NCBI RefSeq assembly: GCF_002924445.1
Contig: NZ_PIGG01000033.1
Location: forward strand, 1-34,896
From: Minwuia thermotolerans
Lineage (GTDB): Bacteria > Pseudomonadota > Alphaproteobacteria > Minwuiales > Minwuiaceae
Length of the DNA stretch: 34,896 nucleotides
Reading direction: 5' to 3'
The notes under the pieces are model-generated. The model saw only the letters and a program-made list of their open reading frames with translations. It ran no database searches and was not told where the DNA came from. Positions 1-28,723 of this stretch are shown one piece after another. Both the position numbers and the translations under genes were made by a program. Position 1 is the stretch's first letter; the number at the start of each line of letters is the position of its first letter.

Positions 1-258
1 GCCGGAGAAGCCGCCATCGTCGTAATGGGTCGGCAGTTCCATCCAGCCCTCGTGCTGCTGGCTCCGGATGTAGGCGGCGCAGGCCTCGCGCTGGGCGTCC
101 AGCGAGTTGAAGGCCTGTTCCAGCCCCTCCTCGCTGGACTTGCGGGTGTAGATGGCACAGCGAACCGATCGACTGCCGAGAGGAACTCGCGATGCACCGT
201 GGCCCCTGTCTCGGCCTGCACCTGATTGACCACCGTCCTGCCGGCTGCGCTCAGCCAT
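1..258 (-). CDS. Large serine recombinase, N-terminal part (runs off the window)
   Basis: This is the first 86 codons of a site-specific recombinase reading leftward out of the window. After a poorly conserved leader of about 32 residues, the resolvase/invertase catalytic fold begins with [20 protein letters not shown]; the Ser after YTRK is the expected nucleophile. The stretch ends at DDGGFSG, another resolvase-domain hallmark. The start ATG overlaps the stop of the DUF2924 gene by 8 bases, so the two are translationally coupled. Serine recombinases of this type integrate and excise islands. The trio DUF3489-DUF2924-recombinase is a recurrent alphaproteobacterial island module, so this gene probably mobilises, or once mobilised, the neighbouring defence cargo. 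The C-terminal DNA-binding part is outside the window, so integrity cannot be judged. Confidence 0.88.
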
Positions 259-925
259 TGCGGCTGGCTCCGTTCGCTGGAGTATTGTCGGGCTGCCGAC
301 CGTCGTGATGTCGGTTCTGACCACGCCTGCTCAGACCCGCGCCTGCCGCTGATGCGTTGACACCGAAGAAGCGCGGGCCGGACCAGCCGGCGCCGGTGAT
401 CGCCCGGGCGATGGCCGTGAGCGAGGTAAAGTGCCGACCCTCATAGGTGAACCCGGCATCGGTGACCTCGACGACATGGCTGCGGCCATGCCACTGCCGG
501 ATCAGACGGCTGCCGGGACGGAGGTTGCGACGGCCGGCAGACGGGACTTCCCTGATCGGTGCCGAGCCATCCACCGCGCCGTCGGCGCCGCTCCCGCTTG
601 ACCGCGCCAGCGCATCGAGGCGACGGCGGGTAGCGGCTGTCAGCCCGCCGGACGCCTCGGCCTGCAGCAGCCAAGCTGCATTCCCTTCCAGCAACCTTCG
701 GCTCAGACCTTTCGGCGGCGGTCGCCGCCAGCGGCGCTGCCAGAGCACGGTGAGTTCCTCCCGGGCCATGGCCCGGACACGGGTGTCAATGGTTCCTTCC
801 GGCAATCCCGCAGCCGGTGATGACGCCGGTACGGCTGGGGCATTGACACCGGCCGGCACTGGGACCGCCTCGCAGGCGGCGACATCGCTGTCGTCGCCTG
901 CGCGGATGGTGTTCTCCTTTCGCAT
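251..925 (-). CDS. DUF2924 domain protein
   Basis: The protein has about 224 residues if it starts at the ATG at 925; an upstream in-frame ATG at 988 would overlap the DUF3489 gene and looks less likely. The middle ([20 protein letters not shown] and the following helix) and the C-terminal half ([19 protein letters not shown], then [16 protein letters not shown]) match the DUF2924 pattern, a family of unknown function. Family members are almost always encoded directly upstream of a large serine recombinase, as here, and may assist or control recombination. It starts 13 bases after the DUF3489 stop and overlaps the recombinase start. No catalytic motif is visible. The last 30 residues are low-complexity and may not be conserved. 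Confidence 0.8.
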
Positions 926-938
926 CGCCGCGGCGCGG

Positions 939-1481
939 TCAGTCGACCATCGCGTCCGCGCTGGCCGGCAGCGTAGCCCGATAGACACTGACGCCGTTGC
1001 CTTCCTTGGTGCGGGTCACGTCGATGCCGCGCTTGCGGAATCCCGTCAGCACCGCCCGGACGCTGTGCGGCTGCCAGCCGGTGAACTGCACCAATTCGTC
1101 GATGTCGGCGCCTTCGTCACGCTGCAGCAGGTCGAGAAGCTGCGCCTGCCGGGTCCCCGGTCGGAAGAGCGGCTTCTGGGCGTCGTGACCATCGCCCGTG
1201 TCCGGTTCCGCGACAGCCGACTGCGGCGCCGCTTGCTCCTCTTCGCTCTCGTCGGCCTCAGTCGCGACCGTCCCCGCGACCGCTGCACGACCGGCCTCGG
1301 TGATGGTCCATACATCGTCCGCCGAGCGCTCCACACGGCCGCGGCGCTCCAGGGCCCGCAGCATGGCGGTGAGCGCGCCGCCCTTCAGTCGCATGTCCTC
1401 CGGCAGCGGCAGCACGCAGCCGTCGGCACGTTCTGCCGCATTGGCGAGGATGACGATATGCCTGTCATTGAGCTTGGTCAT
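939..1481 (-). CDS. DUF3489 domain protein, probable DNA-binding regulator
   Basis: The predicted protein has 180 residues. The start was placed at the ATG at 1481 because a GGAG lies 7 bases upstream and the protein then begins MTKLNDRHIVILANAAERAD, the typical DUF3489 opening; a longer frame to 1640 adds only unconserved sequence. The N-terminal half looks like a winged-helix fold (LKGGALTAMLRALERRGRVE). An acidic, Ala-rich linker follows, and the C-terminal half is a second helix-turn-helix-like unit (RQAQLLDLLQRDEGADIDEL, then TGWQPHSVRAVLTGFRKRG). The family is of unknown function and repeatedly found at the head of serine-recombinase modules. A role in regulating or accessorising the recombinase is inferred from position only. 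Confidence 0.82.
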   Translation of the reverse strand: MTKLNDRHIVILANAAERADGCVLPLPEDMRLKGGALTAMLRALERRGRVERSADDVWTITEAGRAAVAGTVATEADESEEEQAAPQSAVAEPDTGDGHDAQKPLFRPGTRQAQLLDLLQRDEGADIDELVQFTGWQPHSVRAVLTGFRKRGIDVTRTKEGNGVSVYRATLPASADAMVD

Positions 1482-1658
1482 GGTCGGTCTCCGTGGCTTC
1501 GTTCCGCGCCGGCACGATGCCGGCGCTGTCACCAAGAGAAGCCCGGACCGCGATGCGGAGGCCGGGCCGGGACCGGCTGCGCACATGTCCGCGCTGTCCG
1601 TCCCGACTGCATGCATGCTTGCCTGGCGGGCGAAGTCCAATGCAATTTGAAATGACCG

Positions 1659-1675
1659 CCTAATTTCTAATTAGG
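1659..1675. repeat. Perfect 7-bp inverted repeat, candidate operator
   Basis: CCTAATT and AATTAGG are separated by three bases. The dyad sits about 180 bases upstream of the DUF3489 start in AT-rich DNA, next to a second dyad at 1681-1703. It could be a regulator-binding site or part of an attachment site. Confidence 0.4.
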
Positions 1676-1680
1676 TAGTA

Positions 1681-1703
1681 GACGAGTGGCGATAAGACTC
1701 GTC
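1681..1703. repeat. Perfect 7-bp inverted repeat with 9-base spacer
   Basis: GACGAGT (1681-1687) pairs with ACTCGTC (1697-1703). It lies five bases from the neighbouring dyad at 1659-1675. Two tandem dyads in front of an integration module suggest binding sites for a regulator or the recombinase; this is inference. Confidence 0.4.
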
Positions 1704-1852
1704 ATTGGTGGATAAAATCGTCTTGTATATGAGTAATTCTTGGTAAAAATCCCAAATTGCAGCATCAAGTATTATCTGAATGATTTATTTTGTTATTTAT
1801 TTTTAAATATGAGGCATAAGTACTGCGTATGAAAATTGACTATTTTCCAGTT

Positions 1853-1879
1853 AGTGAGTAATTCCACGCATTAGTCACT
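1853..1879 (-). terminator. Imperfect hairpin over the stop codon of the five-gene operon
   Basis: AGTGAGTAAT (1853-1862) and ATTAGTCACT (1870-1879) pair at 9 of 10 positions around a 7-base loop, overlapping the TGA of the Hsp70-like gene. A second small dyad (GAAAAT/ATTTTC, 1831-1847) follows in the direction of transcription. The stems are AT-rich and lack a proper U-run, so this is at best a weak terminator or a transcript-stabilising hairpin. Confidence 0.3.
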
Positions 1880-4424
1880 CCTCCATTTCATCGATTCTTT
1901 GAATGATGTTCGGATCACGACCCTCCTTGTGGAGGAAATATATCAGTTCGGAGATGATTTCTTTCGCCTTGCCGAGCCGACTGGCCGATGCGAGGAGGCG
2001 CTGTCTGTTGCGACCCTTCGTGCGGCCGGCACGACGGCGGAAGTCTGGGATCAACTGCTCCATCCGAGTCTGTGCGTCCTCCTTGAGCAGACGTTCGAGG
2101 TTCTGGGCAGCCCTGTTGTCCGGGTCGAGGAAATCAGGCTGCATCCGCCGTCGACGGAGCAGCGATGCCAGCATAAGCAGGGCATACTTGAATTTCTGCT
2201 TATAAGCCTTGTCCTTAGCAATTGCATTTTGCTCTTCAATGAGCGCCTGGGTGGCTTGAAGGAAGCGGTTCGCTTGTTCAGCGCTCAGCCAATCGGCGGC
2301 CTCCTCGACGCTGCCCAGCAAGCGCGTCAAAGCCGCGAGTTCGGCGTTCCGGATCGGCTGGCCTGTGACGAGGCGCCGCTCGATCGCCTGATAGAAGCGG
2401 TGCGCCTCGGCCTTGCAGTGAACGACGCGGCCCAGCCCTTCGAGCCGGACGATGAGATCGCCGCCCTTCCCGGCCCCGCCGGCCTCGTACCAGCGCAGTA
2501 ACTCTTCAACGATCGGATCCGGACACCGCCAATAGCACCACGTCGCGAAGCCGATGATCGCACGGACATGCTCGTCCACGTCATCGACTTTCTGCAGGCG
2601 CTCATGGTCCAAGGCCGCTTTCTCCAACGCCTTTGAAAGCAACCCATCCGCCTCAGCCGGCATGGGGAGAGTGGGGGCGGCCTCCGGCAAGTCGCCGTTC
2701 GTGTTCAGGAATCGGGCGGACGTGGTCTCGCCGATTGCGATCCCAAGGCGCACTCCTTCGTAAGACGGCATCACCGACTTTGATGCAATGTCTTTGACCT
2801 GCTTGAGCGCCACTGCGCCCTCCGGTGTCACGCCCCCCGCCTCGATCAAGGGAGTCTCGCTATAGGCAGTCAGGGCCTGGGCGATATCACCGTGACGGGA
2901 GTTGGGGTGCCACAAGACGGCGTGGCCCAGATAGATCTGGGCGTTTGGATAGGCGCCGCCTTTGTCGCTTTGCAAGGTGGCGAGGATGTCCTCTGGCGTC
3001 TGCTCGACTGCCGCCATCTGCGTCCAATCGAGCTCAATCGGTTGGGCCGCGAGCGGCGCAAAGCTGTTGGAGCCTATCCGGACGCGGGCGAATCCCTGGC
3101 CCGGCGATTGATCGACGGAGACCGAGATGCGATGCGGACGGTCCGAGATCTCCGGCAAGGCGGCAGTCGACTTCCGGGGCCGGTTAAAGTCCTCCTTGAT
3201 CAGATAGAACTCCAGTTGGTGGGCGCCCTTGCCGATGGCAAATTCGCCGTCCGCCTCCGCGCGGTAGACAGCGCCGCCGCGCAGCCGTGTGTCTGGCGGT
3301 ATCAATGAGACGAACCGTACCTTCCCCTGCACCAGCGCATTGATCTGAAGCTGCGGCAGGAAATCATAGTAGGCGGGATCGCCGCGGCGGAGACGGTGGT
3401 TTGCCTCAAGTGATCCCTGGGCGACGGCCCACGGGTCGAGAAGCCGGAGGCGCGGATCGTCCGGCGAGACGCCGAGACCCTCGAGAACGCCGCGGCGCAC
3501 TGGAGACGCTTGCGCACCGGCTCCTTCAATCAGCACGACATCGGCCTCGGCGACACGTGTGCGGACCTCCTCCGGCGGCGGCCCTTCTGGAGCGAGGCGC
3601 GCTGGCGGATTGAGCGGCGTGAGATCCATCCAGCTTCTGTTGGTCATCCGGAACAATTCGGGTGCGGCGGTTTGCCCGACCGACAGTGTCCAGGGGCTAC
3701 GGGAGCCGGCGAGAATCTCGCCCGGCGTGAGCCCGGTCTCTCGGGCGAGGTTCTGGGCCGCCCATGTCGCAAGGGTCAGCCCCCCGAAATCACTCCACAC
3801 GACCGCCCCGGCCCGCCGTCGTTCAGGGACGATCAGTGGTCCGAACCGCCCGTCCTCTTTGACAAGCGCGAGCGCACCGAAGTGGACCCGTTCGCGAAGA
3901 ATGGAGACGACTGCTACGCGCGCGCCTGAAACACCCGCTGGCGATGGAGTCTCCGAGGCGGCCCAGCCAAGCGTCGCCGCCACCGGCCGCCATAGGAGCG
4001 ACGGGCTCGGTGCCCGGGCGCGGTGCAGCGCCTGCAGCATCCGCTCGCGAGCGGCCTCGTCGACGCTGTCGTCATCGGGTACGGCGATCACGGCGGATCG
4101 GGCCCGCTCGGCGAGGATCCGGAAGAGCGTCTTAAGAAGCTTCTCCGCATCCTGCTCATCCTGGCCGGCGACGGTGATCGCCCTCAGCATGGCTGCATGC
4201 GACAGACGCAGACGCTCATGCCCCAAGTCGGCCCATCCCTGGCCTCGGCCGTGAGGGGCCAGCACAGTCTGAGGCCCTGCGACCATCGCCTCCTCATTGC
4301 TTGCAAGGCGGACGCAAGCGGCGTTCACGCCCAGGTCCTTGAGCGCCTCGTCGCCAGTTTCCTCCTCATGGATCGCGGCCCAATCCCACAGGCCGTTCAG
4401 ATCCAGGCCGATCAGCGCCGTCAT
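1875..4424 (-). CDS. Divergent Hsp70-like (actin-fold) protein, last gene of the five-gene operon
   Basis: This 849-residue protein opens with ALIGLDLNGLWDWAAI, matching the position of the Hsp70 phosphate-1 loop but lacking the usual GTT. At about residues 290-340, VVLIEGAGAQASPVRRGVLE followed by DPWAVAQGSLEA closely resembles the Hsp70 adenosine-binding segment (VxLVGGxxRxPxV, then PxxAVAxGAA). The middle region, about 165-230, should hold the phosphate-2 loop but shows no DLGGGT. Residues 380-520 look beta-rich, as in a substrate-binding domain, and 570-849 are mainly helical and charged. I call it an Hsp70-family NBD/SBD homologue, possibly with altered or lost ATP hydrolysis. Its ATG overlaps the stop of the McrC-like gene (ATGA), so it belongs to that operon. 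Its role there, for example assembling or restraining the McrBC-like complex, is unknown. Confidence 0.6.
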   Translation of the reverse strand: MTALIGLDLNGLWDWAAIHEEETGDEALKDLGVNAACVRLASNEEAMVAGPQTVLAPHGRGQGWADLGHERLRLSHAAMLRAITVAGQDEQDAEKLLKTLFRILAERARSAVIAVPDDDSVDEAARERMLQALHRARAPSPSLLWRPVAATLGWAASETPSPAGVSGARVAVVSILRERVHFGALALVKEDGRFGPLIVPERRRAGAVVWSDFGGLTLATWAAQNLARETGLTPGEILAGSRSPWTLSVGQTAAPELFRMTNRSWMDLTPLNPPARLAPEGPPPEEVRTRVAEADVVLIEGAGAQASPVRRGVLEGLGVSPDDPRLRLLDPWAVAQGSLEANHRLRRGDPAYYDFLPQLQINALVQGKVRFVSLIPPDTRLRGGAVYRAEADGEFAIGKGAHQLEFYLIKEDFNRPRKSTAALPEISDRPHRISVSVDQSPGQGFARVRIGSNSFAPLAAQPIELDWTQMAAVEQTPEDILATLQSDKGGAYPNAQIYLGHAVLWHPNSRHGDIAQALTAYSETPLIEAGGVTPEGAVALKQVKDIASKSVMPSYEGVRLGIAIGETTSARFLNTNGDLPEAAPTLPMPAEADGLLSKALEKAALDHERLQKVDDVDEHVRAIIGFATWCYWRCPDPIVEELLRWYEAGGAGKGGDLIVRLEGLGRVVHCKAEAHRFYQAIERRLVTGQPIRNAELAALTRLLGSVEEAADWLSAEQANRFLQATQALIEEQNAIAKDKAYKQKFKYALLMLASLLRRRRMQPDFLDPDNRAAQNLERLLKEDAQTRMEQLIPDFRRRAGRTKGRNRQRLLASASRLGKAKEIISELIYFLHKEGRDPNIIQRIDEMEE

Positions 4425-6040
4425 AGCCCTTCCTCCACCAGAGCGAGTATCTCCTCACTCAGCGTGGTCAGGCCGTCGCTCAAATGTCCGTCGAAGGGAC
4501 CGAAGCTTATCCCGGTCACTGCACCGCTTGCATCAAGGTTTGACGGCGTGGTCGGATTGGTCTCCGCCTGCAAAACGATACCGCCTAGCAGCTGCGCTTG
4601 GGGGTGGGTTCGTTGAAAGAACTGGGCCGTCTCGTCGGCCGACTCCAACAGTGGCCGAAGCGCTGGGCGCGCGCCCATCGCCAGGGTCGTCCAAACCGCA
4701 ACGTATTTATCGGGGCGGCCACTGAGATCAGAGACCTGCAGCCAGACGGACGCCCCTAGCTCGGACAAGGCCGGGGCCAGATTCGTGGAGCAGCCATCGA
4801 GCACTTCAATCACGAGGCCTTTCTTCCGAAAGGCGACGACGATGAGCGGGTCGTCATGCTCCAACCAAACGCCGCGTCGATGCTCTGGCCGAAAGAACAA
4901 AGGCGAGGCGACCTCGATCTCGCCACCATGCGCGGCCAGAAGCGCGACGCCACAGGCGGCCTTCGCGAACTCGCTCCAGGCACGGCGCTGCCAACGCCAG
5001 AGATCGTCGGAGACGCGCTCCCGCTGAACGATCTCCGTCCAGGCGCTCCAGACATGGCGATAGCGGTCATCCTGAATCAGCACGAAGTTCGGCTGCACTA
5101 CCCCGTCAGGCCGTGAGACGCCCGTCGCCTGGAGCTCCCGTGCAAAGCGTCGACATTCGCGCGCGTATTGTTCGACGATCCGGTAGCGGCTGGTGCGTCC
5201 ATGCGCGTCCCGGTCAATCCGCCGGCCGCGGTTTTGGCGAAGATAATCCCGCGCGGCCGCCTCGGTGCGTTCCATCAAATCGCGGAGGACGCGGTTCTCC
5301 AACGTATCGAGGTTCTCATAGCGAGCGAGTGCCAATATGCGTTGGCGCGGGCCGGCGCGTTCCTGCATCGTGCGTCCCGGTTGCCGAGAAAGCCAGGCCA
5401 TGCACTGGGTGTCTAACTCTTCCACCCGGTTCAGCCCGACCAGCTCCCGGGTGCGATTCAATATCCGGCGCGGTCGCTCGACGATGTCGGCCCAACGAGC
5501 ACGATGCTGCATTGCATGGCGGACAACAACGTCCATGGTAGGGTCCTGGTTGGACTCGGATTCAAGCCACCGATCGAAGACCGTCTCCCACGGCAAGAAG
5601 CGCTTGCCCTCCGACAAGGCGGAATCGAAATTCTGTATCCGTCCCACTAGCGCCATCAAGAACTGGAAATGCTGGACGTCGGCATCATCGGCGTCCTGCT
5701 CTGGATCCTTCCCATAGGGTCGGGAGAGCAGGCCCGACCAGCCGATCGTTGCACTTTCCCGCCAGGCGGGCTTGCGCAGCCGCTGAACCATCTCCGCCCG
5801 CAACGGCGCGGGCATGTCGAAGAACCCATGACCGGCGTCGTGGGAGCGCAGCTTCGACCGCCGCTCAAGCGAGTCTGGCTGATCCTCGAACCAGGGCGTC
5901 TGCGGCGCGTCGGTGTACAGAAGCGGATAACCGTCGCCTGGGACGATCGCGCTCGCCCCGGCCCCGTTCAGCTCGATCCGCTCTGTCGGATCGCGCGATA
6001 TGAGGCCCCAGGGGGTCGTCGTGACGATGAAGTCGGGCAT
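4421..6040 (-). CDS. McrC/DUF2357-like partner of the McrB-like motor
   Basis: The protein has 539 residues. Its central part carries features of the McrC/DUF2357 group: RYENLDTLENRVLRDLMERT at about 240-262 (the (D/T)xENR helix) and QPNFVLIQDDRYRHVWSAW at about 318-337 (the NxxLxxDxRYxxV motif), followed by DLWRWQRRAWSEFA. McrC proteins normally end in a PD-(D/E)XK nuclease with a D...DxK signature. In the last 150 residues I see no clear catalytic set; the nearest candidate stretch, LVIEVLDG, lacks the lysine. It starts 9 bases after the McrB-like stop and overlaps the Hsp70-like start by four bases. The pairing with an AAA+ McrB-like gene supports the call more than sequence identity does. 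It may have become a structural or regulatory subunit. Confidence 0.6.
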   Translation of the reverse strand: MPDFIVTTTPWGLISRDPTERIELNGAGASAIVPGDGYPLLYTDAPQTPWFEDQPDSLERRSKLRSHDAGHGFFDMPAPLRAEMVQRLRKPAWRESATIGWSGLLSRPYGKDPEQDADDADVQHFQFLMALVGRIQNFDSALSEGKRFLPWETVFDRWLESESNQDPTMDVVVRHAMQHRARWADIVERPRRILNRTRELVGLNRVEELDTQCMAWLSRQPGRTMQERAGPRQRILALARYENLDTLENRVLRDLMERTEAAARDYLRQNRGRRIDRDAHGRTSRYRIVEQYARECRRFARELQATGVSRPDGVVQPNFVLIQDDRYRHVWSAWTEIVQRERVSDDLWRWQRRAWSEFAKAACGVALLAAHGGEIEVASPLFFRPEHRRGVWLEHDDPLIVVAFRKKGLVIEVLDGCSTNLAPALSELGASVWLQVSDLSGRPDKYVAVWTTLAMGARPALRPLLESADETAQFFQRTHPQAQLLGGIVLQAETNPTTPSNLDASGAVTGISFGPFDGHLSDGLTTLSEEILALVEEGL

Positions 6041-6049
6041 CGCGCTCGA

Positions 6050-8149
6050 TCAGTTCCCGGTCCGCTGAAGGCCGCGCCAGTTGAAGATGCCGATGGAGCG
6101 GTTGGCGCGGTCTACAGCCTCGTCGATCGCCTTTCCAAGCTGTTGGTCGTTCAGACGATCGCCGGCGATCTCCGCCAGCTTCTGCAAGGCAGCACGATCT
6201 GCCCCGGCGTCGACGCCGCGCAGTTTCGGCATGATCCGCTGTTCCAGCTGATCGGCCAGCGCGTTGTCAACCTGGGCGGTGTTGTTGGTCTGGCCCTGCG
6301 CCGCCGGATAGTTCGCGACATAGTGCAGCATCGCCTGGCTCATGCGGTGGCCGAACGGACGACCCAGTTCGTCCATGACGCCGTTGATCTCCTCAATCAC
6401 CCGGCCTGCGCGATCGCGGCCGGAGGCGTCGAGCGCATCCGCCTCGCGCATCCAGTTCCGCGTCCATCGCGATTTTGGCAGGTATCCCGTCGCCCGGGCT
6501 TGAGGATCGGCGTCCGGCAGCTCTTCGCGCAGTTCCGCAGGCCTGGGAAAACGGAGGATGTTCGCGCGGTCCATCACCTTGTCGGAAAGGGCGAGGGTCG
6601 ACTCATCCTCGTTCATCGTGCCGGCGAACAAGACATTCTGCCCCGCATAAACCCGCATCGGCTGCCCTTTGTGGCTGACGTCGACCGAGATTTCCGCAGG
6701 CGCGCGCTCACGCTCGTCTGCAGCCCTCTCATCCATCGGACGGCCCTCCAGGCGGCTCAGAAATTCGGAGAAATAGTACTCGACCCGCGCCAGATTCATC
6801 TCATCCAGGAGTACGAGAAGCATCCGATCCTCGAATCGCTTCGCCTCGTCCGGCCAGTTGTAGGGGTCAAGATGAACGAGCGCGCGGGCGAGATCAGTCG
6901 CCTTGTAACGCTTTTCGATGTAATTGTAGAAGCCGAACAGATCCTGCGGCCCGTCCCAACGCGGCTGCACTGGGATCTTGAGAAAATGCATCCCCATGGC
7001 GTCCGCGTAGCGCCGCGGCAGCTGGCTCTTGCCTGTGCCGCTGATGCCGGCCAGTACGGTTAGGGGCGAAATGACGGCCGTCTTCAGGCTGGTATGGAAG
7101 GCGTTGATCGTGCGTCGCGAGAACTCCAGACCGCTTTCCTGCAGCAGCATCTCCACCCGTGCCAGCGCGTCCATTTCGGTCTCGGCGCCCTGCTCCTTCG
7201 GCCAGACGACTTGATCGTGCGCCTCGTCGTACAGGCAGGACGGCGCCGTTCGCAGATCCTGCAAAACTCGGGCGTCATGGCCTGCGCCGTCGACCTCGAC
7301 ATCCGCTTCCTCTTGCAGCCGGGCGACGCGCGCCTCCAAGCGATCTTTCCGCGCTTCTAGTTTGTCTATCTCCTCCTCCAGGTTGGTGGACCGCGCCTTG
7401 AGCTCATCCCGGGTTCCGTTGAGCTCGGCCACTTCGGCGCGCGAGGGCTCCAGCTGCTCAATCTCTTGACGGATCTCGGACACCTGCTCCGCTAGACGCT
7501 CCTTGCTGTCAGCCAGACGCGCCGTCTCGCGGTTCAGATTCTCCTCCTGCAATCGCAGCGCGCTCATCTCCTGGCGTTTGACGTCGACCTCGCCGGCGAC
7601 CTCCGTGAGTTCAGCGCGCAGAGCCTCGAGCCTCTCTTCAAGCTCCGCCGCGTACTTCTCCTTGTCCGCGATCTCCGCGAGCCGCTCCTCCGCCTCCTTG
7701 ATGCGGGTTTCGGCCGCTTTGCGCTCCTCGCGAACGGCTTCGATCTCCTGGATTACGCGGCGCCACTCCGTCTCCTTCGCCGCAAGTGCCTCGACCGCCT
7801 GGCGGTGCTCTTCACGGACTTCCTCGATCTCGGCCCTTTGATCTCCTAGGTTGGCGTACTCTGCCCGGTGGGTCTCAACCTGGGTGCGCCAGTATTCAGC
7901 CTCCGCCTCCGCTTGGTCGCGCTCGGCGAGCGTCACTTCACGTTCACGAATTTGCTCCTCCAGATACTGCAGTCTGTCTTCGTTGGCGCCGACGCGCCGA
8001 AGCAGCTCTGCATCCCGAACAGCCGCGGGTAGCCTGGATGAGTCGACAATGAAACGCGTCCCAAGGTAGGCGACGATCACGACTGCCGAACCGCTGGCGA
8101 CCGCCGCGACGACGACGGCGAAGCTGGTGGGATCAAGAAAGGGGATCAT
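6050..8149 (-). CDS. Membrane-anchored coiled-coil McrB-like AAA+ NTPase
   Basis: The protein has 699 residues. Residues 8-33 form a hydrophobic helix (FAVVVAAVASGSAVVIVAYL), so the protein is probably membrane-tethered. Residues about 55-280 are a long Glu/Arg/Leu-rich coiled coil. The C-terminal half is an AAA+ domain of the McrB type: Walker A GISGTGKS near 370, Walker B and the family signature LLDEMNLARVEYYFSEFLSR near 450, then GTMNEDESTLALSDKVMDRA near 510 with sensor and arginine residues. McrB assembles hexameric rings that drive McrC. Classical McrB is a GTPase with an N-terminal DNA-binding domain, whereas here a membrane helix and coiled coil replace it, and the nucleotide used is uncertain. 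Genes before and after encode a second membrane coiled-coil protein and the McrC-like partner. Confidence 0.8.
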   Translation of the reverse strand: MIPFLDPTSFAVVVAAVASGSAVVIVAYLGTRFIVDSSRLPAAVRDAELLRRVGANEDRLQYLEEQIREREVTLAERDQAEAEAEYWRTQVETHRAEYANLGDQRAEIEEVREEHRQAVEALAAKETEWRRVIQEIEAVREERKAAETRIKEAEERLAEIADKEKYAAELEERLEALRAELTEVAGEVDVKRQEMSALRLQEENLNRETARLADSKERLAEQVSEIRQEIEQLEPSRAEVAELNGTRDELKARSTNLEEEIDKLEARKDRLEARVARLQEEADVEVDGAGHDARVLQDLRTAPSCLYDEAHDQVVWPKEQGAETEMDALARVEMLLQESGLEFSRRTINAFHTSLKTAVISPLTVLAGISGTGKSQLPRRYADAMGMHFLKIPVQPRWDGPQDLFGFYNYIEKRYKATDLARALVHLDPYNWPDEAKRFEDRMLLVLLDEMNLARVEYYFSEFLSRLEGRPMDERAADERERAPAEISVDVSHKGQPMRVYAGQNVLFAGTMNEDESTLALSDKVMDRANILRFPRPAELREELPDADPQARATGYLPKSRWTRNWMREADALDASGRDRAGRVIEEINGVMDELGRPFGHRMSQAMLHYVANYPAAQGQTNNTAQVDNALADQLEQRIMPKLRGVDAGADRAALQKLAEIAGDRLNDQQLGKAIDEAVDRANRSIGIFNWRGLQRTGN

Positions 8150-8195
8150 GGCTATGGTCCTGGTCCGCTCTGAAAGGGCATGGGGTTGATTCGGT

Positions 8196-9770
8196 CTACT
8201 GCGCCGTCGGTTCCGCCGCTGGCCGAGTTTCAGACTCTTGCGCGCACAAGGCTTGCTGGCGTTCCTCCTCTTGCATGCACAAGGCGTGCTGGCGTTGCTC
8301 GAGGCGCGCGATCAGCCCCGTCAGTTCCATGACTCGGGCGCTGTGATCTTCGACCTGAAGAGACACGTTCCGGAGATCCCCCTGTGCTTGGGAGAGCGCC
8401 TGACGCTCCGCGGCGACTTCAGCTTGCAAGGAGCTTCGCTGCTCCCGCAAAGACTCGAGCGACTGCTGACGGCTCGCGATCTCGGCGGAGAGGAAGTCGG
8501 ATTCCGTCTGCAAATCCGCGAGACGCGCGTGGAGCGTCTCCTGGGCGCGGCGACTTTCCGCCTCCGCGGCGGCGGCCTGCGCCCGCGCACTCTCAGCCGC
8601 CTGCAACGCCTGCTCGGCCCTCGCGAGGGCCTCCTGGCGGGCCTGCAATTTGTCCTCGACCTGCTGCAACCGTCCTTGGGTCGCTTGAAGATCGGCGACC
8701 CGTTGCTGCAAACTGTTCTGTCGGCCGCTCAGCTCGCTCACCTCCGCGTTGATCATGTTTCGCTGCGAAACAGCCTGACCGAGCGCTTCCTCAGCGTGCT
8801 CAATCTCGGCCCGCAGGGCGTCTCGCTCGCTGCGCAGCTCGGCCAACGTCGCCTGAATCTGCTCGACGCGGTTCTCGTCCAGTTCAAGAGACTCGCTTGC
8901 GGCGTGCAGGTCGGCCACGCGCGCTTCCAGACGGTCCGCCTGCTCCTGCAAACGCTCGGCGCGTCGCACAGCCGCATCAGCCGCGTTCTTCGCCTCCGCG
9001 GCGCGTTGCTGCGCCGGTTGGAGAGCTTCGCGCGCCGCCTGCTGATCCGCCCGCAGACGTTCGAGCCTCGCATTCTCGCTCTTGATCGTGCGCTCCAAGG
9101 ACTGCCGCCGTCCTTCGGCCCCACCGACCTGCTCCTCGAGCTGGGCCAGCTGATTGCGCGCTTCCGAGGCCTGATCTTGCGCCTCGGCCAATCGCCCCTG
9201 CGCGGCTTCTCGATCTCGCGTCAAGCGCTCAACCGCCTGTGCCAGATCCGACCGCCGCGTCCCCAGATCCTCCATCTCTGATTGGAGGGAGTCGCGACGC
9301 CCCTCGGCCTCGCGGATCATATTGCGGATGCTGTTGAGCTCTAGCTGCGCCGCGTCCCGACGATCCCCGATATTCGCAAGCTCTTCCCGAGCTCGGTCCG
9401 CCCGGGCGACGGTGTCGCGCGCCTGCTCCAAGTCACTCGACATGCGGTCGCGTTTGCTTTCGAGGGCAGCGACTTTCGACTGAAGCTCGATGCGCCGCTC
9501 TTCCGACGCTGCGACGTATTGGGCAACAGTCGTCAGTTGCTGGCGCTGCTGCCCCAACCTCTCGTCGATCCGCGCCAGTTCCTGCTCCTTGACCCCCAAC
9601 TGGATCGCATTGGTCGCAACCGCGATCGACAGATAGATAAGCGCGAGCACGGCGACCGCCGCCGACACTGCCAAGGCGATCATCGCGCCGCGGCCCGTTC
9701 GAACAGGGTCTTGCTCTTGCAGCCGCTCCGCGTAGCTAGCGCCGGTCGATTTCTCGTCGGACTCGCTCAA
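8196..9770 (-). CDS. Membrane-anchored coiled-coil protein
   Basis: The protein has about 524 residues and is not assignable to a named enzyme family. After a polar N-terminus of about 26 residues there is one strong transmembrane helix (AMIALAVSAAVAVLALIYLS), then nearly the whole remainder is a coiled coil rich in Gln, Arg, Glu, Ala and Leu heptads. I chose the TTG at 9770 (GTG at 9773 is adjacent) because GGAGGGG lies six bases upstream; the longer frame back to 9911 would merely shadow the end of the helicase gene. With this start the gene overlaps the helicase by 35 bases, implying coupled translation. It may form filaments or a membrane scaffold with the coiled coil of the McrB-like protein; that interaction is inferred from shared architecture and operon position. 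Confidence 0.78.
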   Translation of the reverse strand: MSESDEKSTGASYAERLQEQDPVRTGRGAMIALAVSAAVAVLALIYLSIAVATNAIQLGVKEQELARIDERLGQQRQQLTTVAQYVAASEERRIELQSKVAALESKRDRMSSDLEQARDTVARADRAREELANIGDRRDAAQLELNSIRNMIREAEGRRDSLQSEMEDLGTRRSDLAQAVERLTRDREAAQGRLAEAQDQASEARNQLAQLEEQVGGAEGRRQSLERTIKSENARLERLRADQQAAREALQPAQQRAAEAKNAADAAVRRAERLQEQADRLEARVADLHAASESLELDENRVEQIQATLAELRSERDALRAEIEHAEEALGQAVSQRNMINAEVSELSGRQNSLQQRVADLQATQGRLQQVEDKLQARQEALARAEQALQAAESARAQAAAAEAESRRAQETLHARLADLQTESDFLSAEIASRQQSLESLREQRSSLQAEVAAERQALSQAQGDLRNVSLQVEDHSARVMELTGLIARLEQRQHALCMQEEERQQALCAQESETRPAAEPTAQ

Positions 9771-12700
9771 CACACCCCTCCATGTCGTCCCGTAGTTCGT
9801 AGACCCAGAACCTGAGAATTCTCCATCCGAGCCCGCGCAGCGTGTGGTCGCGCCACAAATCGCTCGACAACCGGTCACCATCTGCGTCGCGATGGTAAGC
9901 CTCGCCGTCAACCTCCAGATCGAGCATCAGCGGTGGATCGCGCGTCTCGTCCAGCACGGCCAAATCCAGGAACCGACCGCCAACCGGATATTGCGGAATC
10001 GCATCTACGCCTTCCTTGCGGAGCGCCTCATAGAAGCGTCGCTCCCAGACGCTGTCGAAGCGATCGTCCGAATCGCTGGTGTCGGTGCCGGCATTACGAT
10101 TGCGGGCACGTTTGACTCGGCGCGCCAAGGTTTCAACGTGCGGTATGCCACAGCTTTCAGCGAATCCAAGATCGCCGACGATGTGACATACGGCGCGCGC
10201 ACGAGAGACCGCGACGTTCAAAAGGCGCTTCTCTCGCCGGATGAAGCCAAGCGCCCCGGTCGGCATGTCAGCCGCCATACAGAGTGAGAGCAGCATCACG
10301 TCGCGCTCGTCCCCCTGGAACTTGTTCGCGGTAAAGACCTTGATCCGGTGGCGGTCGCGTGCCGCCTGCGGGATGGCGCGCGATAGGCGGGAACCTATTT
10401 CCTTCGCCTGGTAGTCGAAAAAGCTGACTACGCCGATCGTTCCCTCGTAGCCGGACTCGGTCAGCGTGCGCACCTCCGCGACCACCGCGTCGGCCTCCGC
10501 GGGCGAGGCGGCGGAGCCGGAGACGGTGTTGCTGCGGGCCCGAGATACGATGCCGCCGCGAACGTCCGTCCAATGCAAGCCGGGCGGCATGCCCTTCGGA
10601 ACCTTCAGGCTATTCCGATCGGTAAAGGCGTGCAGGCGCCTACCGTAAAAGGCCTCGTTGATGTAGCCGACGATGTCGGGGTGGCAGCGGAAATGCTCGG
10701 TCAGCATGAAGCGCCGCGCCTCCGGCGTGGACGCTGCCAAATCGAACAACGTCGTGCGCCCCTGGGCGAAGCGACCGACGCCCGAACGATAGAGCCCGTG
10801 GGTCTCCAGCAGCGCCCGTTCTTCGCGAGCATCCAGATTGCTGATCATCGACAACTGATTGGGATCGCCGACGATCACCGCCTTCTTGGCGCGATAGAGC
10901 AAGGGGACCGCGGAGGCGATGTCGGTCTGCGCCGCTTCGTCGAAGACGACGTAGTCAAACAGACCGGCCTCCAGCGGGATGCGCGATCCGGCCGCAAGTG
11001 TCGTGACGGCCCAGACCGGCTGATGTGCCAGGACGATTTTTTGAGCCTTGGCTGGCAGGCTTCGATTGCCGCCTAGGGCGGCCTCCGCCTGAAGATCGGT
11101 CAGGGTCTGCCGGTCTTCCGCCGACAGCGCCTCCAGCCGGTCCAGCATATCGGGGGCGAGCTTGACCGCCAGCCGCTGGATCTCACGCGACAGCTCGACG
11201 GGATCGTCCGTCTGCGCCTGCGCCTCCGCGCGGCGCTGACGCAAAGTGTTTTCCGCTTGCTCGACTGCAGTCTGCGCCGAGCGTAACTCCGCTTCGGCCC
11301 GCACCAAAGCGTGGCGTGTCCCGATTTCCTGCCGCGTGCCTCGCCCGAGCTTGGCGAGAAGCCAGTCGAAGAGGAGCGGAAGCCAGGAGCGCTTCTCGGC
11401 CTCCGCCGTCAGCCCTTTGCGGCGCGCCGCCTCACGCGTCCGCTCGAGCAGGTCCTGCGCCGCCTCCAGCGCCAATCGCGCGCCGGCCGCTTCGTTCGTC
11501 GTCGCGGCCACCGCCCGGTGGGCGTCGATGATGTGCCAGCGCCGCCTCTCCAGATCGTGGACGGCGCGCAAGCGCTCTTCAAATCGATGCTCGGAGGAGT
11601 TCACGTCGCCACGGGCGAGAAGCCCCTTCAGCGCATCTCGAAAGTTGAAGCTGTCGCCGAGTTCAGGGGAGTTGGCGCGCACCATTAGGGTCCGCTCGCC
11701 GGTAAGGTCCTGAAGACGCTCCTGGACGGCGTCGAGAGCGCGATGCTGGCGCGCGGCGAACAGGACGCTCTTGCCTTCCAACACGGCGCTGAAGATCAGG
11801 CCGGCAATCACCTGCGACTTGCCGGTGCCAGGCGGCCCGGTGACGACGGTCAGAGGGCCTTCCAGGCCTGCGCGTGCGGCCAGCAGCTGCGATTCGCCTA
11901 GCTCGATCGGCGCGGCGACTGCGGGCGGCGGCTCGATTTCGGTTGGCGCTTCGTCGAACAGCGGGGCGAGCGCAGTCGGCCGCATCGTCTCGATCGGAAG
12001 GTCGACCAGCCGCTCGTAGTCCTTGATCGCGGACCGGACGTATTTTCCCGGCGCCTCGCAGGAGAGTGATAGGACGTTGTAGAGGCCTGTCTCCGGCTTG
12101 ATCGGGATGACGCGCTGAATGGCGCCCGGATCCATGGGGGCTCGCGCGGCCTTGTTGAGCGCTGATTCCAACCGCGCTGCAAAGGCCGGTGCTTCGAGAA
12201 AGGCGGCCTGCGGCGCTTCGTCTTCCTCGCCGAGGTCGAGATCCGGATCCTCATAAAGCAGATAGCCGCGCAGACGCGCCGGATCCCATTTGGCGAACCG
12301 CCCTTGGTCGCGCAGCCATTCGTAGTTCAGGTTCGGCGACGCCGCTGGGATCTCGAAGGATAGCCCCTCTTCGTTGAAGGTAAATCGGCAGGGATAGACC
12401 GCCGCCGGGCGCAGGAACGGGTCGGACTCCGGATCGCGCGGCGTCACCAGGAGATTGGGATAGCCCAGAAGAAGTTTGCCGCCGCTCGCCTTCGCCAAGG
12501 TCTCCTGAAACGGGCCAGGGACCGCAGCCCGCGCGATCCGAACCCGCCGCCCGCGCGCTTCCGTTGGCCACCAAGGGGCGTCCGGCTGAATCAGAACAAA
12601 GCTCTGATTAGCCTTGCCGAGGCTTTCGATCGGCGCACCACCATCGCTGGCCCGGAGGCAGGCCTGATAGTAGGACAGCAACTTGCGCAGTAGCGTCAGG

Positions 12701-13053
12701 CTAGGCCTCAGCGTCCCGTCCGGCAAGGTCTCAGACGGCGCGCCCGCCAAGTCGCCAACCACAACATGGGCGGGGATCGCGTGAATGCGATCGTGGCTGT
12801 CCGCTCCGCCGTATTGTAGAGTGGAGTGCTCGGCACCCGGCTGTTGACGCCTCAGAGTCCATTTTCGACCGCCGCCGAACTCGGCGACGCCGCGGGCGCT
12901 CATCCCGCTCAGGGTGCGCACGATTTCATCCTTGCGCACGGACGCGCCCCCCGCCTGCAGCAAGGACCGTAGTCTTTCGACAGAGACACCGTCGCGCGCT
13001 CCAGAAAGCAGCCGGGCCAACTGCTCCTCAAGCGAAAACTCGCTGTGTGGCAT
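9736..13053 (-). CDS. SF1 (UPF1-like) helicase fused to a Vsr/MTES_1575-like endonuclease
   Basis: The protein has 1105 residues. The first 70 residues look like a winged-helix unit (VSVERLRSLLQAGGASVRKD). The SF1 helicase core carries Walker A VTGPPGTGKSQV near 405, an insert of about 200 helical residues, motif II VVFDEAAQTDIASAVPLL near 700, VIVGDPNQLSMIS, LTEHFRCHPDIV, FTANKFQGDERDVMLLSL and the motif VI region NVAVSRARAVCHIVGD near 950. The last 110 residues form a nuclease-like fold (SVWERRFYEAL, GRFLDLAV, LDLEVDGEAYHRDADGDRLS, GWRILRFWVYEL), as in the REase_MTES_1575/Vsr group, with acidic residues in place. It is the first gene of the five-gene operon, preceded by GAGGGG. A role in unwinding and cutting invading nucleic acid is the natural reading. 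Confidence 0.85.
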   Translation of the reverse strand: MPHSEFSLEEQLARLLSGARDGVSVERLRSLLQAGGASVRKDEIVRTLSGMSARGVAEFGGGRKWTLRRQQPGAEHSTLQYGGADSHDRIHAIPAHVVVGDLAGAPSETLPDGTLRPSLTLLRKLLSYYQACLRASDGGAPIESLGKANQSFVLIQPDAPWWPTEARGRRVRIARAAVPGPFQETLAKASGGKLLLGYPNLLVTPRDPESDPFLRPAAVYPCRFTFNEEGLSFEIPAASPNLNYEWLRDQGRFAKWDPARLRGYLLYEDPDLDLGEEDEAPQAAFLEAPAFAARLESALNKAARAPMDPGAIQRVIPIKPETGLYNVLSLSCEAPGKYVRSAIKDYERLVDLPIETMRPTALAPLFDEAPTEIEPPPAVAAPIELGESQLLAARAGLEGPLTVVTGPPGTGKSQVIAGLIFSAVLEGKSVLFAARQHRALDAVQERLQDLTGERTLMVRANSPELGDSFNFRDALKGLLARGDVNSSEHRFEERLRAVHDLERRRWHIIDAHRAVAATTNEAAGARLALEAAQDLLERTREAARRKGLTAEAEKRSWLPLLFDWLLAKLGRGTRQEIGTRHALVRAEAELRSAQTAVEQAENTLRQRRAEAQAQTDDPVELSREIQRLAVKLAPDMLDRLEALSAEDRQTLTDLQAEAALGGNRSLPAKAQKIVLAHQPVWAVTTLAAGSRIPLEAGLFDYVVFDEAAQTDIASAVPLLYRAKKAVIVGDPNQLSMISNLDAREERALLETHGLYRSGVGRFAQGRTTLFDLAASTPEARRFMLTEHFRCHPDIVGYINEAFYGRRLHAFTDRNSLKVPKGMPPGLHWTDVRGGIVSRARSNTVSGSAASPAEADAVVAEVRTLTESGYEGTIGVVSFFDYQAKEIGSRLSRAIPQAARDRHRIKVFTANKFQGDERDVMLLSLCMAADMPTGALGFIRREKRLLNVAVSRARAVCHIVGDLGFAESCGIPHVETLARRVKRARNRNAGTDTSDSDDRFDSVWERRFYEALRKEGVDAIPQYPVGGRFLDLAVLDETRDPPLMLDLEVDGEAYHRDADGDRLSSDLWRDHTLRGLGWRILRFWVYELRDDMEGCVERVRREIDRR

Positions 13054-13190
13054 CGCCCCTCGCGCTTCTCATGATCCAAAGCGATAGGCTACTGTCGGGC
13101 GTGCCGATGAGGCAATTGCAACCTGCGTGTTTCTGCCCCCGGAACCCAGCTGATGTAGCGCTTAGTCGTCTAAGTGTTTAGTCCCATGGT
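13054..13190. promoter_or_regulatory. Divergent promoter region between helicase operon and dehydrogenase
   Basis: The 137-base gap must start transcription of the leftward five-gene operon, and probably of the rightward dehydrogenase too. It contains a CTTAG/CTAAG inverted repeat (13161-13174) and a direct repeat TTAGTC at 13162-13167 and 13178-13183, 16 bases apart. On the minus strand a weak TTGCCT/TAGCCT pair with 18-base spacing can be proposed as a promoter. No regulator gene sits beside it. Confidence 0.4.
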
Positions 13191-14300
13191 GTGATGGTAG
13201 AATGCCGGCTGCCCATGGCGGGCGATATGTTGGAGCCGGATCCAGTGCCGAATGTCCTGACGCTTGTCCCGCTTTCCGATGCCGACCGGCGACGTATCGA
13301 GGCCGTCGATCCATCGGTCCATCTTGTCGACGCTGGCGGCTGGTTCGACGGCGAGTACCGCGAGACCTGGCCCCGATACGCGGTCGACCTCTATGTCGCG
13401 CCCGACAGTGCCGGCAAGGCCTCCCGCTCCGAACGCGATGCCTTGCTTGCCGAGGCCGAGATCGTTCTGGGTGGCTGGCCTTTCCCGCTCGATCTGCGTG
13501 CCCGGGCACCACGGCTCCGTTGGTTCCACCAGCGCCCGGCTGGGGCAAGCAATCTGCGGCTGGGCGACCTCTGGGCCAGTGACGTCGTCGTAACCACTTC
13601 CCGCGGCCTGGCCAACGCGCTGCCGGCCGCGGAGTATGTCGTCGGCGGCATCCTGCACTTCGCGAAGGCGTTCGATCGGGCGGCGACGGACCAGGCCAAC
13701 CGCCGCTTCGACCGTCACGCCTATCGACCATGGCTGCTGGCGGGCAAGACTGTCTGCATCGTCGGCACAGGCGGCATCGGCGCCGAGGCCGGTCGCCTGT
13801 GCGCCGCGCTTGGCATGCGCGTCGTGGGCACGCGGCACCGTCTGCCCGTAGACTCTCAGGACCGGCCCGAGGGCTTCGCCGAGATTGGCGGACCCGGTGA
13901 CCTTCACAGGCTGCTGGCGCAAAGTGATGCCGTGGCGATCTGCTGCCAGTGGACGCCCGAGACCACGCGCCTTATAGATGCGGCGGCGCTCGCGGCGATG
14001 AAGCAAGGCGGCATCGTTGTCAATGTCGCCCGAGGCGAAATCGTCGACGAGGACGCGCTGGTTCAGGCGCTCGATGCCGGACAGCTCGGCGGAGCCGTGC
14101 TCGACGTCTATGTTGGAGAGTTCGAGCATCCGCCGCCCGAACGGCTCTCGGGCCATCCGCGCATCCTTCTGACACCGCATACCTCGACCGGCAGCGATGT
14201 GAACCGCCACCGGTCGATCGACATCTTCTGCGAGAACCTCCGTGCATGGCTCGCCGGGCGCCCGCTTGCGAACGTCGTCGACTGGGATCAGGGCTATTAA
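13191..14300 (+). CDS. D-isomer-specific 2-hydroxyacid dehydrogenase (NAD-binding)
   Basis: The protein has about 369 residues, within the family range. It has a Rossmann fold with CIVGTGGIGAEAGRLCAALG near 188-207, then the C-terminal signature with catalytic Arg in NVARGEIVDEDALVQAL near 280, the catalytic Glu position in LDVYVGEF (Phe where Pro is usual) and the catalytic His in LLTPHTSTGS near 330. It should interconvert a 2-keto acid and a D-2-hydroxy acid with NAD(P)H in the cytoplasm; the substrate cannot be told. The start is uncertain: GTG 13191, ATG 13194, 13215 and 13227 are all in frame and none has a good ribosome site. It is the only plus-strand gene of the defence region, divergent from the helicase operon and converging on drmB. 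Whether it is metabolic cargo or contributes to defence is open. Confidence 0.85.
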   Translation: MMVECRLPMAGDMLEPDPVPNVLTLVPLSDADRRRIEAVDPSVHLVDAGGWFDGEYRETWPRYAVDLYVAPDSAGKASRSERDALLAEAEIVLGGWPFPLDLRARAPRLRWFHQRPAGASNLRLGDLWASDVVVTTSRGLANALPAAEYVVGGILHFAKAFDRAATDQANRRFDRHAYRPWLLAGKTVCIVGTGGIGAEAGRLCAALGMRVVGTRHRLPVDSQDRPEGFAEIGGPGDLHRLLAQSDAVAICCQWTPETTRLIDAAALAAMKQGGIVVNVARGEIVDEDALVQALDAGQLGGAVLDVYVGEFEHPPPERLSGHPRILLTPHTSTGSDVNRHRSIDIFCENLRAWLAGRPLANVVDWDQGY

Positions 14301-14382
14301 TCTGGCATGGATCTTGGCGGTCAAGCCGACGCGGCCGTATCAACAACGGTCGGGAGAGAACCAGACCCTCAACAGCGTTACC

Positions 14383-14413
14383 TATAAACGCGCACTCGAA
14401 GGGGAGCAGATCA
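14383..14413. repeat. 31-bp imperfect direct repeat, left copy (flanks the DISARM operon)
   Basis: The sequence beginning TATAAACGCG and ending GGGAGCAGATCA matches 28 of 31 bases at 27364-27394 in the same orientation. This copy ends six bases beyond the drmB stop codon. The two copies bracket the whole DISARM operon, suggesting the scars of an insertion event or of two copies of one insertion-sequence end. The origin of the repeat is not known to me. Confidence 0.7.
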
Positions 14414-14419
14414 TTTAAT

Positions 14420-27091: not shown

Positions 27092-27123
27092 CGATACCCC
27101 TCCAAGCGCACCCGCAGGTTGCG

Positions 27124-27152
27124 ATGCTTTCACCCGGATCACCAGCGGTCAA
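27124..27152 (-). promoter_or_regulatory. Candidate drm operon promoter
   Basis: On the minus strand TTGACC (27152-27147) and AAGCAT (27129-27124) are 17 bases apart, which would give a short leader before the drmD start at 27091. The -10 box is poor, so this is a suggestion only. It fits the choice of the downstream drmD start. Confidence 0.25.
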
Positions 27153-28720: not shown

Positions 28721-28723
28721 GCC

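What the first reader, a model, noticed from the sequence alone, without database searches (positions are those of the whole stretch)
1875..13053. Five-gene operon: helicase-nuclease, two membrane coiled-coil proteins (one a McrB-like AAA+), McrC-like partner and Hsp70-like protein
The five genes are on one strand, overlapping or closely spaced, and all large. The McrB/McrC-like pair indicates a type IV restriction core, but the DNA-binding N-domain is replaced by a membrane helix and coiled coil. A UPF1-like helicase with a Vsr-like nuclease and a divergent Hsp70 are added. From memory the set resembles CoCoNuT-type systems; the exact combination, with two membrane anchors and next to DISARM, may be a distinct subtype.
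Basis: partly seen in the sequence, partly recalled or inferred. Interest (0 to 1): 0.8.

Follow-up and report, generated by a model that had tools for sequence, protein, structure and literature searches.

The report
Membrane-tethered type III-B CoCoNuT operon
This is a five-gene bacterial operon, predicted to fight viruses, of a kind already described from sequence; comparison with its relatives shows that two of the five proteins are predicted to be anchored in the cell membrane, which gives a testable idea of where and how it acts.

Summary
The five genes are real, at the stated coordinates, in one order on one strand. They match, part by part, the published type III-B CoCoNuT (PMC11090510): CnuH (UPF1-like helicase with fused Vsr nuclease), CnuA (coiled coil), CnuB (coiled coil plus McrB-like GTPase with the short NxD motif), CnuC (DUF2357, no conserved catalytic lysine) and CnuD (probably Hsp70-like). 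The same five genes in the same order are intact in 11 loci including the window; three more are broken, cut or decayed. No DISARM protein was seen among the neighbours I scanned at other loci, so 'distinct subtype, next to DISARM' is not supported. What the CoCoNuT papers' main text does not mention is an N-terminal membrane helix on both coiled-coil proteins: CnuA 12 of 12 and CnuB 13 of 13 readable III-B sequences, against 0 of 7 CnuB/McrB-like proteins outside types III-B/III-C. Charge bias hints at opposite topologies (GTPase inside; CnuA coiled coil perhaps outside), weakly for CnuA. Best reading: an inner-membrane-tethered GTPase/helicase/nuclease defence complex. Identity about 0.95; mechanism about 0.4.

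The parts
9736..13053 (-). cnuH: UPF1-like SF1 helicase (Walker A and B intact) with C-terminal Vsr-like nuclease; first ~70 aa look like a winged helix by eye only
   Evidence: AAA_11/AAA_12/MTES_1575; family profile matches SEN1, UPF1, SMUBP-2 in PDB; motifs
9748..10044 (-). Vsr-like (MTES_1575) domain of CnuH, residues 1004-1102; D1030, E1047, D1049, H1054 unchanged in 11 of 11 aligned sequences
8196..9773 (-). cnuA: N-terminal membrane helix then ~450 residues of coiled coil; GTG start at 9773 with GAGGGG just before it
9612..9689 (-). predicted membrane helix of CnuA (residues 29-54)
6050..8149 (-). cnuB: membrane helix, coiled coil, McrB-like AAA+ GTPase
   Evidence: AAA_5 22.8 bits; PDC-M26A 152 bits; alignments
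8057..8131 (-). predicted membrane helix of CnuB (residues 7-31)
6605..6613 (-). NxD signature (N513-E514-D515) of the CnuB GTPase
4421..6040 (-). cnuC: DUF2357 (McrC N-terminal) homologue without a conserved PD-(D/E)xK lysine
   Evidence: DUF2357 33.8 bits; no invariant lysine in 11 sequences, only one column with 8 or more lysines, at residue 80
1875..4424 (-). cnuD: probable Hsp70-like (NBD/SBD) protein with helical C-terminal part
   Evidence: Foldseek: 40 matches at E<=0.001, nearly all Hsp70-family entries, best 1.1e-7, on a model of mean pLDDT 41

Best explanation
It is a type III-B CoCoNuT, predicted to be a phage-defence operon. SHOWN by comparison: the five components and their fixed order, an NxD-type GTPase, a UPF1-like helicase fused to a Vsr-like nuclease with its likely catalytic residues kept, an McrC homologue without a conserved catalytic lysine, a probable Hsp70-like protein, and N-terminal hydrophobic helices kept on CnuA and CnuB. 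INFERRED: CnuB forms an AAA+ GTPase ring, stimulated by CnuC, that hangs from the inner membrane on a coiled-coil stalk; CnuA is a second membrane-anchored coiled coil that pairs with it or gates it. CnuD and CnuC contribute nucleic-acid recognition near the envelope, where phage genomes enter and are first transcribed. GTP hydrolysis licenses CnuH, whose helicase feeds a strand to the fused Vsr domain, probably the only active nuclease of the system.
For: Part-by-part match to the published III-B description. Same five genes, same order, intact in 11 loci (10, L047). CnuB GTPase domains of 13 III-B loci form one clade, 97/94. NxD in 13 of 13 rows, 12 III-B and one III-C. Vsr residues unchanged in 11 of 11. 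No invariant lysine in CnuC, 11 rows. Hsp70 fold for CnuD: coherent Foldseek hits, while an equally poor model of CnuC gave 0 hits at E<=0.001. Membrane helix: CnuA 12 of 12, CnuB 13 of 13 III-B plus the III-C CnuB; none at the N-terminus of 7 of 7 other CnuB/McrB-like proteins; base rate 7 of 62 neighbouring genes. Several neighbours are defence genes.
Against: No phage challenge, binding or nuclease data for a III-B system in the papers I saw. Substrate (RNA or DNA) is unknown; Vsr folds usually act on DNA (recalled). Both AlphaFold models are poor (pLDDT 41 and 34), so the Hsp70 fold rests on 3Di matches with query-normalised TM-scores of 0.12-0.17, and the fold-search tool itself warns about such models; the CnuC nuclease fold is untested. 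CnuD against DnaK by profile-profile comparison scored no better than shuffled columns.
Confidence: 0.6

Rival explanations
1. RNA-targeting, possibly abortive, defence in the cytoplasm, as Bell et al. propose for CoCoNuTs in general: CnuD and CnuC bind aberrant or viral RNA, CnuH-Vsr cleaves RNA, and the membrane helices only help local assembly.
For: Probable Hsp70-like CnuD, CnuC without catalytic lysine, UPF1-like helicase; the authors' argument.
Against: Does not explain why two separate coiled-coil proteins keep membrane helices throughout III-B; Vsr-like domains are usually DNases (recalled).
Confidence: 0.25
2. Ordinary type IV restriction of incoming modified DNA: CnuB/CnuC translocate on modified phage DNA and CnuH-Vsr cuts it.
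For: McrB/McrC homology; Vsr-like nuclease residues kept; some neighbours are DNA-targeting systems (DISARM, GmrSD, BrxA).
Against: CnuB has no N-terminal reader domain, only membrane helix and coiled coil; CnuC lacks a conserved catalytic lysine; CnuD has no role in this model.
Confidence: 0.15
3. Not a defence system but a housekeeping or stress operon.
For: No experiment shows defence.
Against: Rare and patchy: 1 of 385 genomes of the class, 7 of 295 in one family; found on plasmids, on a contig filed as viral beside an integrase, and beside defence genes.
Confidence: 0.04

Closest known systems
Type III-B CoCoNuT (Bell et al. 2024 eLife, PMC11090510; sections 7, 9, part 1 of 11 and find passages read)
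   Same: All five components: CnuH with fused Vsr, CnuA coiled coil, CnuB NxD GTPase with coiled coil, CnuC without catalytic motif, separate CnuD; no TerY-P
   Different: Its main text mentions no membrane helix for III-B CnuA or CnuB (supplements not readable here). CnuA is described there as having no recognisable domain but the coiled coil
Type III-C CoCoNuT (Synechocystis plasmid pSYSX, L014; type assigned here from gene content)
   Same: NxD CnuB with N-terminal membrane helix; DUF2357 CnuC
   Different: Separate PLD nuclease gene instead of fused Vsr; different gene order
CoCoPALM (PMC11090510 section 7)
   Same: GTPase fused to an FtsB-like membrane helix and coiled coil
   Different: Described with signal-peptidase/pilus-type neighbours and coiled coils on McrC; no CnuH, CnuA or CnuD is described for it in the section read
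Shield ShdA (PMC10270631, passages read)
   Same: N-terminal membrane helix (ShdA II found only in the membrane fraction) with a nucleic-acid-acting domain
   Different: RmuC nuclease in the same protein; no GTPase, helicase or Hsp70 in the passages read
Zorya ZorAB (PMC11890865, abstract and outline read)
   Same: Inner-membrane defence complex with an elongated cytoplasmic tail and a separate nuclease effector
   Different: Ion-driven MotAB-like motor; no homology claimed

Membership tests
CoCoNuT | McrB-like GTPase with NxD signature | tested here: met
   GTMNEDES, N513-E514-D515; 13 of 13 rows of A9
CoCoNuT | Long coiled coil on the GTPase protein | tested here: met
   Heptad power z 5.6 for CnuB
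CoCoNuT | McrC homologue (DUF2357) partner | tested here: met
   33.8 bits, cut-off 23.3
CoCoNuT type II/III | UPF1-like SF1 helicase CnuH beside cnuBC | tested here: met
   AAA_11/AAA_12; SEN1, UPF1, SMUBP-2; order
CoCoNuT type III-B | Vsr-like nuclease fused to CnuH | tested here: met
   MTES_1575 55.1 bits, cut-off 38.2; residues 11 of 11
CoCoNuT type III-B | Separate coiled-coil protein CnuA | tested here: met
   Own gene in the same place; heptad power z 12.1
CoCoNuT type III-B/III-C | CnuD encoded as a separate gene | tested here: met
   Separate, conserved last gene
CoCoNuT type III | CnuD has an Hsp70 NBD/SBD fold and HEAT-like helices | tested here: inconclusive
   Leaning to met: 40 Foldseek hits at E<=0.001, nearly all Hsp70 entries, but on a model of pLDDT 41; sequence profiles negative
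CoCoNuT type II/III | CnuC lacks the PD-(D/E)xK catalytic motif | tested here: met
   No invariant lysine in 11 rows; no lysine-rich column but residue 80; L042 and L047 not in this alignment
CoCoNuT type III-B | CnuC keeps an inactivated nuclease fold and an IG-like N-domain | tested here: inconclusive
   Model pLDDT 34, no usable hits
CoCoNuT type III-B | wHTH at the CnuH N-terminus and an OB fold | not tested
   wHTH-like by eye only; no fold search of CnuH
CoCoNuT type III-B | No TerY-P genes | tested here: met
   None among the window proteins scanned; small ORFs not all scanned
CoCoNuT type III-B | CnuB groups with other III-B CnuBs | tested here: met
   One clade of 13 of 21 rows, 97/94; type labels assigned here from gene content, no published reference sequence fetched; the tool warned that long rows, L014 included, may be misplaced
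CoCoNuT type III-B | Mostly Alphaproteobacteria | tested here: inconclusive
   Host unnamed; named relatives are Rhodovibrionaceae, Rhizobium, Sinorhizobium, Jannaschia
CoCoPALM | Signal-peptidase/pilus-type neighbours; coiled coil on McrC | tested here: not met
   No such family among the window proteins scanned; CnuC heptad z 2.1 only
DISARM (neighbour, 14420-27142) | DrmA, DrmB, DrmD, DrmMI genes | tested here: met
   PADLOC DrmB 283, DrmA 862, DrmMI 1189, DrmD 978 bits

The most novel reading that the evidence does not exclude
Type III-B CoCoNuT is a transmembrane alarm: CnuA sits N-in/C-out with its ~450-residue coiled coil in the periplasm, CnuB sits N-out/C-in with its GTPase in the cytoplasm, and the two membrane helices pair. 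Phage genome ejection or envelope disturbance felt by CnuA is passed through the membrane to the CnuB-CnuC GTPase, which switches on the CnuH helicase-nuclease and CnuD at the entry site. Basic residues favour the N side of the CnuA helix in 11 of 12 sequences with one tie, and the C side of the CnuB helix in 14 of 14 including one III-C. Caution: CnuA margins are small (0-3 residues; 3 against 2 in the window itself, with acidic residues balancing), and the CnuB N side is only 0-6 residues long, so its count could hardly come out otherwise.
Probability: 0.3. Interest if true: 0.75.

Novelty: new member of a known kind. Interest (0 to 1): 0.45.

Why it matters
In the papers I saw, III-B CoCoNuTs are described from sequence only, and Bell et al. 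[quoted passage not shown] A conserved pair of membrane anchors turns a 'coiled-coil restriction system' into a spatial hypothesis: defence at the inner membrane where phage genomes arrive, as in Shield and Zorya. It is directly testable by fractionation, topology fusions and helix deletions in laboratory strains. The survey also suggests that DISARM next door is incidental.

Tried and rejected
Rejected: 'distinct subtype' (same five parts as published III-B; neighbours differ between loci). Rejected: CoCoPALM (lacks its neighbours). Rejected: 9911 as the cnuA start; GTG 9773 has GAGGGG just before it and fits the homologues.

Led nowhere or weak: class-wide searches with one protein and with a profile found only the own genome among 385, and the order search 1 of 9; searches scored only the best few candidates per genome, so misses are possible. 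The genome-contig scan gave one locus; a viral-contig scan with CnuC gave none; phage records gave two weak partial CnuB matches; tblastn with CnuA found no plasmid match. Profiles of CnuD and CnuC against PDB sequences gave only chance-like hits, and the CnuB profile gave only coiled-coil-type chains. Profile-profile comparison of CnuD with DnaK ran from the GxDL start through several Hsp70 landmarks in order but scored no better than shuffled columns. AlphaFold with three sequences gave poor models. Promoter/terminator scan of 1-14500 not above chance; no tRNA; no Rfam match; no notable repeats.

Against my reading: CnuA topology is weak (L042 a tie); 7 of 62 other neighbours also carry an N-terminal hydrophobic stretch; inner CnuH segments reach similar hydropathy, so only N-terminal position and conservation carry the argument. 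The rows are related by descent, and L012 and L013 are near-copies. The family search was centred on G639 because it already had a hit, so 7 of 295 is not a random-sample rate.
Full report
OBSERVATION. The window carries five large minus-strand genes at 13053-1875. cnuH and cnuA overlap by 38 nt (GTG start at 9773), cnuA-cnuB are 46 nt apart, cnuB-cnuC 9 nt, and cnuC/cnuD overlap by 4 nt: an operon-like layout.

WHAT EACH GENE IS. Gene 1 has AAA_11, AAA_12 and MTES_1575, and the family profile matches SEN1, UPF1 and SMUBP-2 in the PDB. Walker A and B, and the Vsr-like residues D1030, E1047, D1049 and H1054, are kept in 11 of 11 aligned homologues (the R. tropici copy, split by an insertion sequence, and the contig-cut L038 are not in that alignment). 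Gene 2 is a hydrophobic helix plus coiled coil, heptad power z 12.1. Gene 3 is a hydrophobic helix, a coiled coil (z 5.6) and an McrB-like AAA+ domain (AAA_5, 22.8 bits against a cut-off of 22) with the NxD signature in 13 of 13 rows. Gene 4 has DUF2357; in 11 homologues (L042 and L047 not included) no lysine is invariant and only residue 80 has lysine in 8 or more rows, the window not among them, which argues against a PD-(D/E)xK active site. Gene 5 has no Pfam family over its cut-off and no meaningful PDB sequence match. Its AlphaFold model is poor (pLDDT 41), yet Foldseek gives 40 PDB matches at E<=0.001, almost all titled as DnaK, BiP, Hsc70, mortalin, Ssb or Hsp110/Sse1 (the matched chain of a few complexes was not checked), best E 1.1e-7 over 460 columns. 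An equally poor model of gene 4 (pLDDT 34) gives 0 matches at that threshold. I take the Hsp70 fold as likely, not proven.

MEMBERSHIP. PMC11090510 (eLife 2024; sections 7 and 9, part 1 of section 11, and find passages read) gives type III-B CoCoNuT as CnuH with fused Vsr and an N-terminal wHTH, a separate coiled-coil CnuA, an NxD CnuB with coiled coil, a CnuC without the catalytic motif, a separate Hsp70-like CnuD, and no TerY-P, mainly in Alphaproteobacteria. The features of parts and order that could be tested, and the tree placement, are met (see the membership table). The Hsp70 fold, the CnuC folds and the host class are inconclusive, and the wHTH and OB fold were not tested.

RELATIVES. 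L011 (R. tropici) has the same order with cnuH split by an IS21 element, L038 is cut by the contig end, and L016 (Jannaschia plasmid) keeps only a cnuC tail plus cnuD. The CnuB GTPase domains of the 13 III-B loci form one clade (97/94) in a 21-row tree, the window and L010 on one side and the other 11 on the other (the tool warned that long rows, L014 included, may be misplaced). Frequency: 1 of 385 genomes of the class, the own one; 1 of 9 of the order; 7 of 398 of the phylum at E<=1e-30 with the CnuB profile, of which 2 (own and G639) match over nearly the full length of the profile; 7 of 295 in the family of G639.

NEIGHBOURS. DISARM (DrmD, DrmMI, DrmA, DrmB) lies upstream of the window operon, parted from it by a plus-strand D-2-hydroxyacid dehydrogenase. 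Elsewhere: Shedu (L013, as annotated); phage integrase, WYL and BrxA (L046/L047); WYL (L037), GmrSD (L039), a class III cyclase with TPRs (L041) and a UPF1-like/RNase H protein (L042); a type II methyltransferase (L010) and a protein like the mad3/mad8 ATPases (L012). In all, 28 of the larger flanking ORFs from nine contigs were family-scanned, not every flanking ORF: 10 with PADLOC and Pfam, 10 with PADLOC (for the L010 methyltransferase only the best 25 of 44 families are shown), 8 with Pfam and PHROGs. No DISARM family is among the rows listed, and the last 8 show no helicase or methylase.

MEMBRANE HELICES. In whole-protein scans the most hydrophobic 19-residue window lies at the N-terminus of CnuA in 12 of 12 sequences that have their start (L038 lacks it) and of CnuB in 13 of 13 III-B sequences, and of the III-C CnuB of L014. 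Seven CnuB/McrB-like proteins outside these types (L015, L023, L024, L025, L027, L028, L029) have none at the N-terminus. Among 62 other annotated neighbours, 7 have such a stretch. Basic residues lie more on the C side of the CnuB helix in 14 of 14 (13 III-B, one III-C), where the N side is only 0-6 residues, and more on the N side of the CnuA helix in 11 of 12, one tie. By the positive-inside rule (established knowledge) this puts the GTPase in the cytoplasm and, tentatively, the CnuA coiled coil in the periplasm. A cleaved signal peptide on CnuA is possible; its 20-27 residue hydrophobic stretch favours an anchor.

NOT IN PRINT, AS FAR AS SEARCHED. The main texts of PMC11090510 and of its preprint PMC10542128 (find passages only) mention membrane helices for CoCoPALM, EssC (eLife text), ShdA and a four-helix neighbour protein, not for III-B. 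Of PMC12458937 I saw the abstract, find passages and section 5: it treats DISARM-related helicases and a type IV CoCoNuT. Full-text searches showed no further paper on III-B among the listed rows; searches list only 20, 20 and 10 of 458, 56 and 594 papers. Supplements and most subscription journals were out of reach.

MECHANISM. CnuB's GTPase domain is predicted to hang from the inner membrane by its helix and coiled coil, with CnuC as McrC-type partner. CnuC seems catalytically dead, so the Vsr domain on CnuH is the only predicted active nuclease. CnuD may bind RNA, as Bell et al. argue. The analogies are ShdA, found only in the membrane fraction and degrading DNA in vitro (PMC10270631, passages), and Zorya's inner-membrane complex with a cytoplasmic tail (PMC11890865, abstract). 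This is what it works like, not what it belongs to.

CAVEATS. The window is nearly the whole of a 35,006-base contig of an unnamed assembly with 3.56% contamination, so the host is known only through kinship to its class.

Noticed in passing
window 14420-27142 (-): DISARM operon: DrmD, DrmMI, DrmA, DrmB, all strong PADLOC matches.
   Followed up: partly
window 27503-31420 (-): Upstream of DISARM: a Schlafen/AlbA_2 plus HATPase_c_4 protein and an 898-aa protein with AAA_21/SMC-type ATPase and a weak PHP match, similar to PADLOC Ppl.
   Followed up: partly
window 13191-14300 (+): D-2-hydroxyacid dehydrogenase gene on the opposite strand between DISARM and the CoCoNuT operon.
   Followed up: partly
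window 1-988 (-): DUF2924 gene and, at the contig edge, a frame with a weak resolvase N-terminal match (19.2 bits, under the cut-off), downstream of cnuD: possible mobile-element end.
   Followed up: partly
L016 9441-12304: Jannaschia sp. W003 21-kb plasmid keeps only a 183-aa cnuC tail ORF plus a whole cnuD: a decayed III-B remnant.
   Followed up: partly
L046/L047: IMG/VR contig carries an intact III-B operon with a phage integrase gene upstream and WYL/BrxA genes downstream; it may be an integrated element rather than a virus.
   Followed up: partly
L042 13848-15998 (-): UPF1-like AAA_11/AAA_12 helicase with an RNase_H_2 domain, similar to PADLOC MkoA, next to a III-B operon.
   Followed up: no
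L014 9368-18520: Synechocystis pSYSX III-C-like locus: its CnuB also has an N-terminal membrane helix, so the tether may be older than III-B.
   Followed up: partly
L011 2723-3673: N-terminal piece of the split R. tropici cnuH gives a weak match to Permuted_GreAB-C (E 0.0019, under the cut-off).
   Followed up: no
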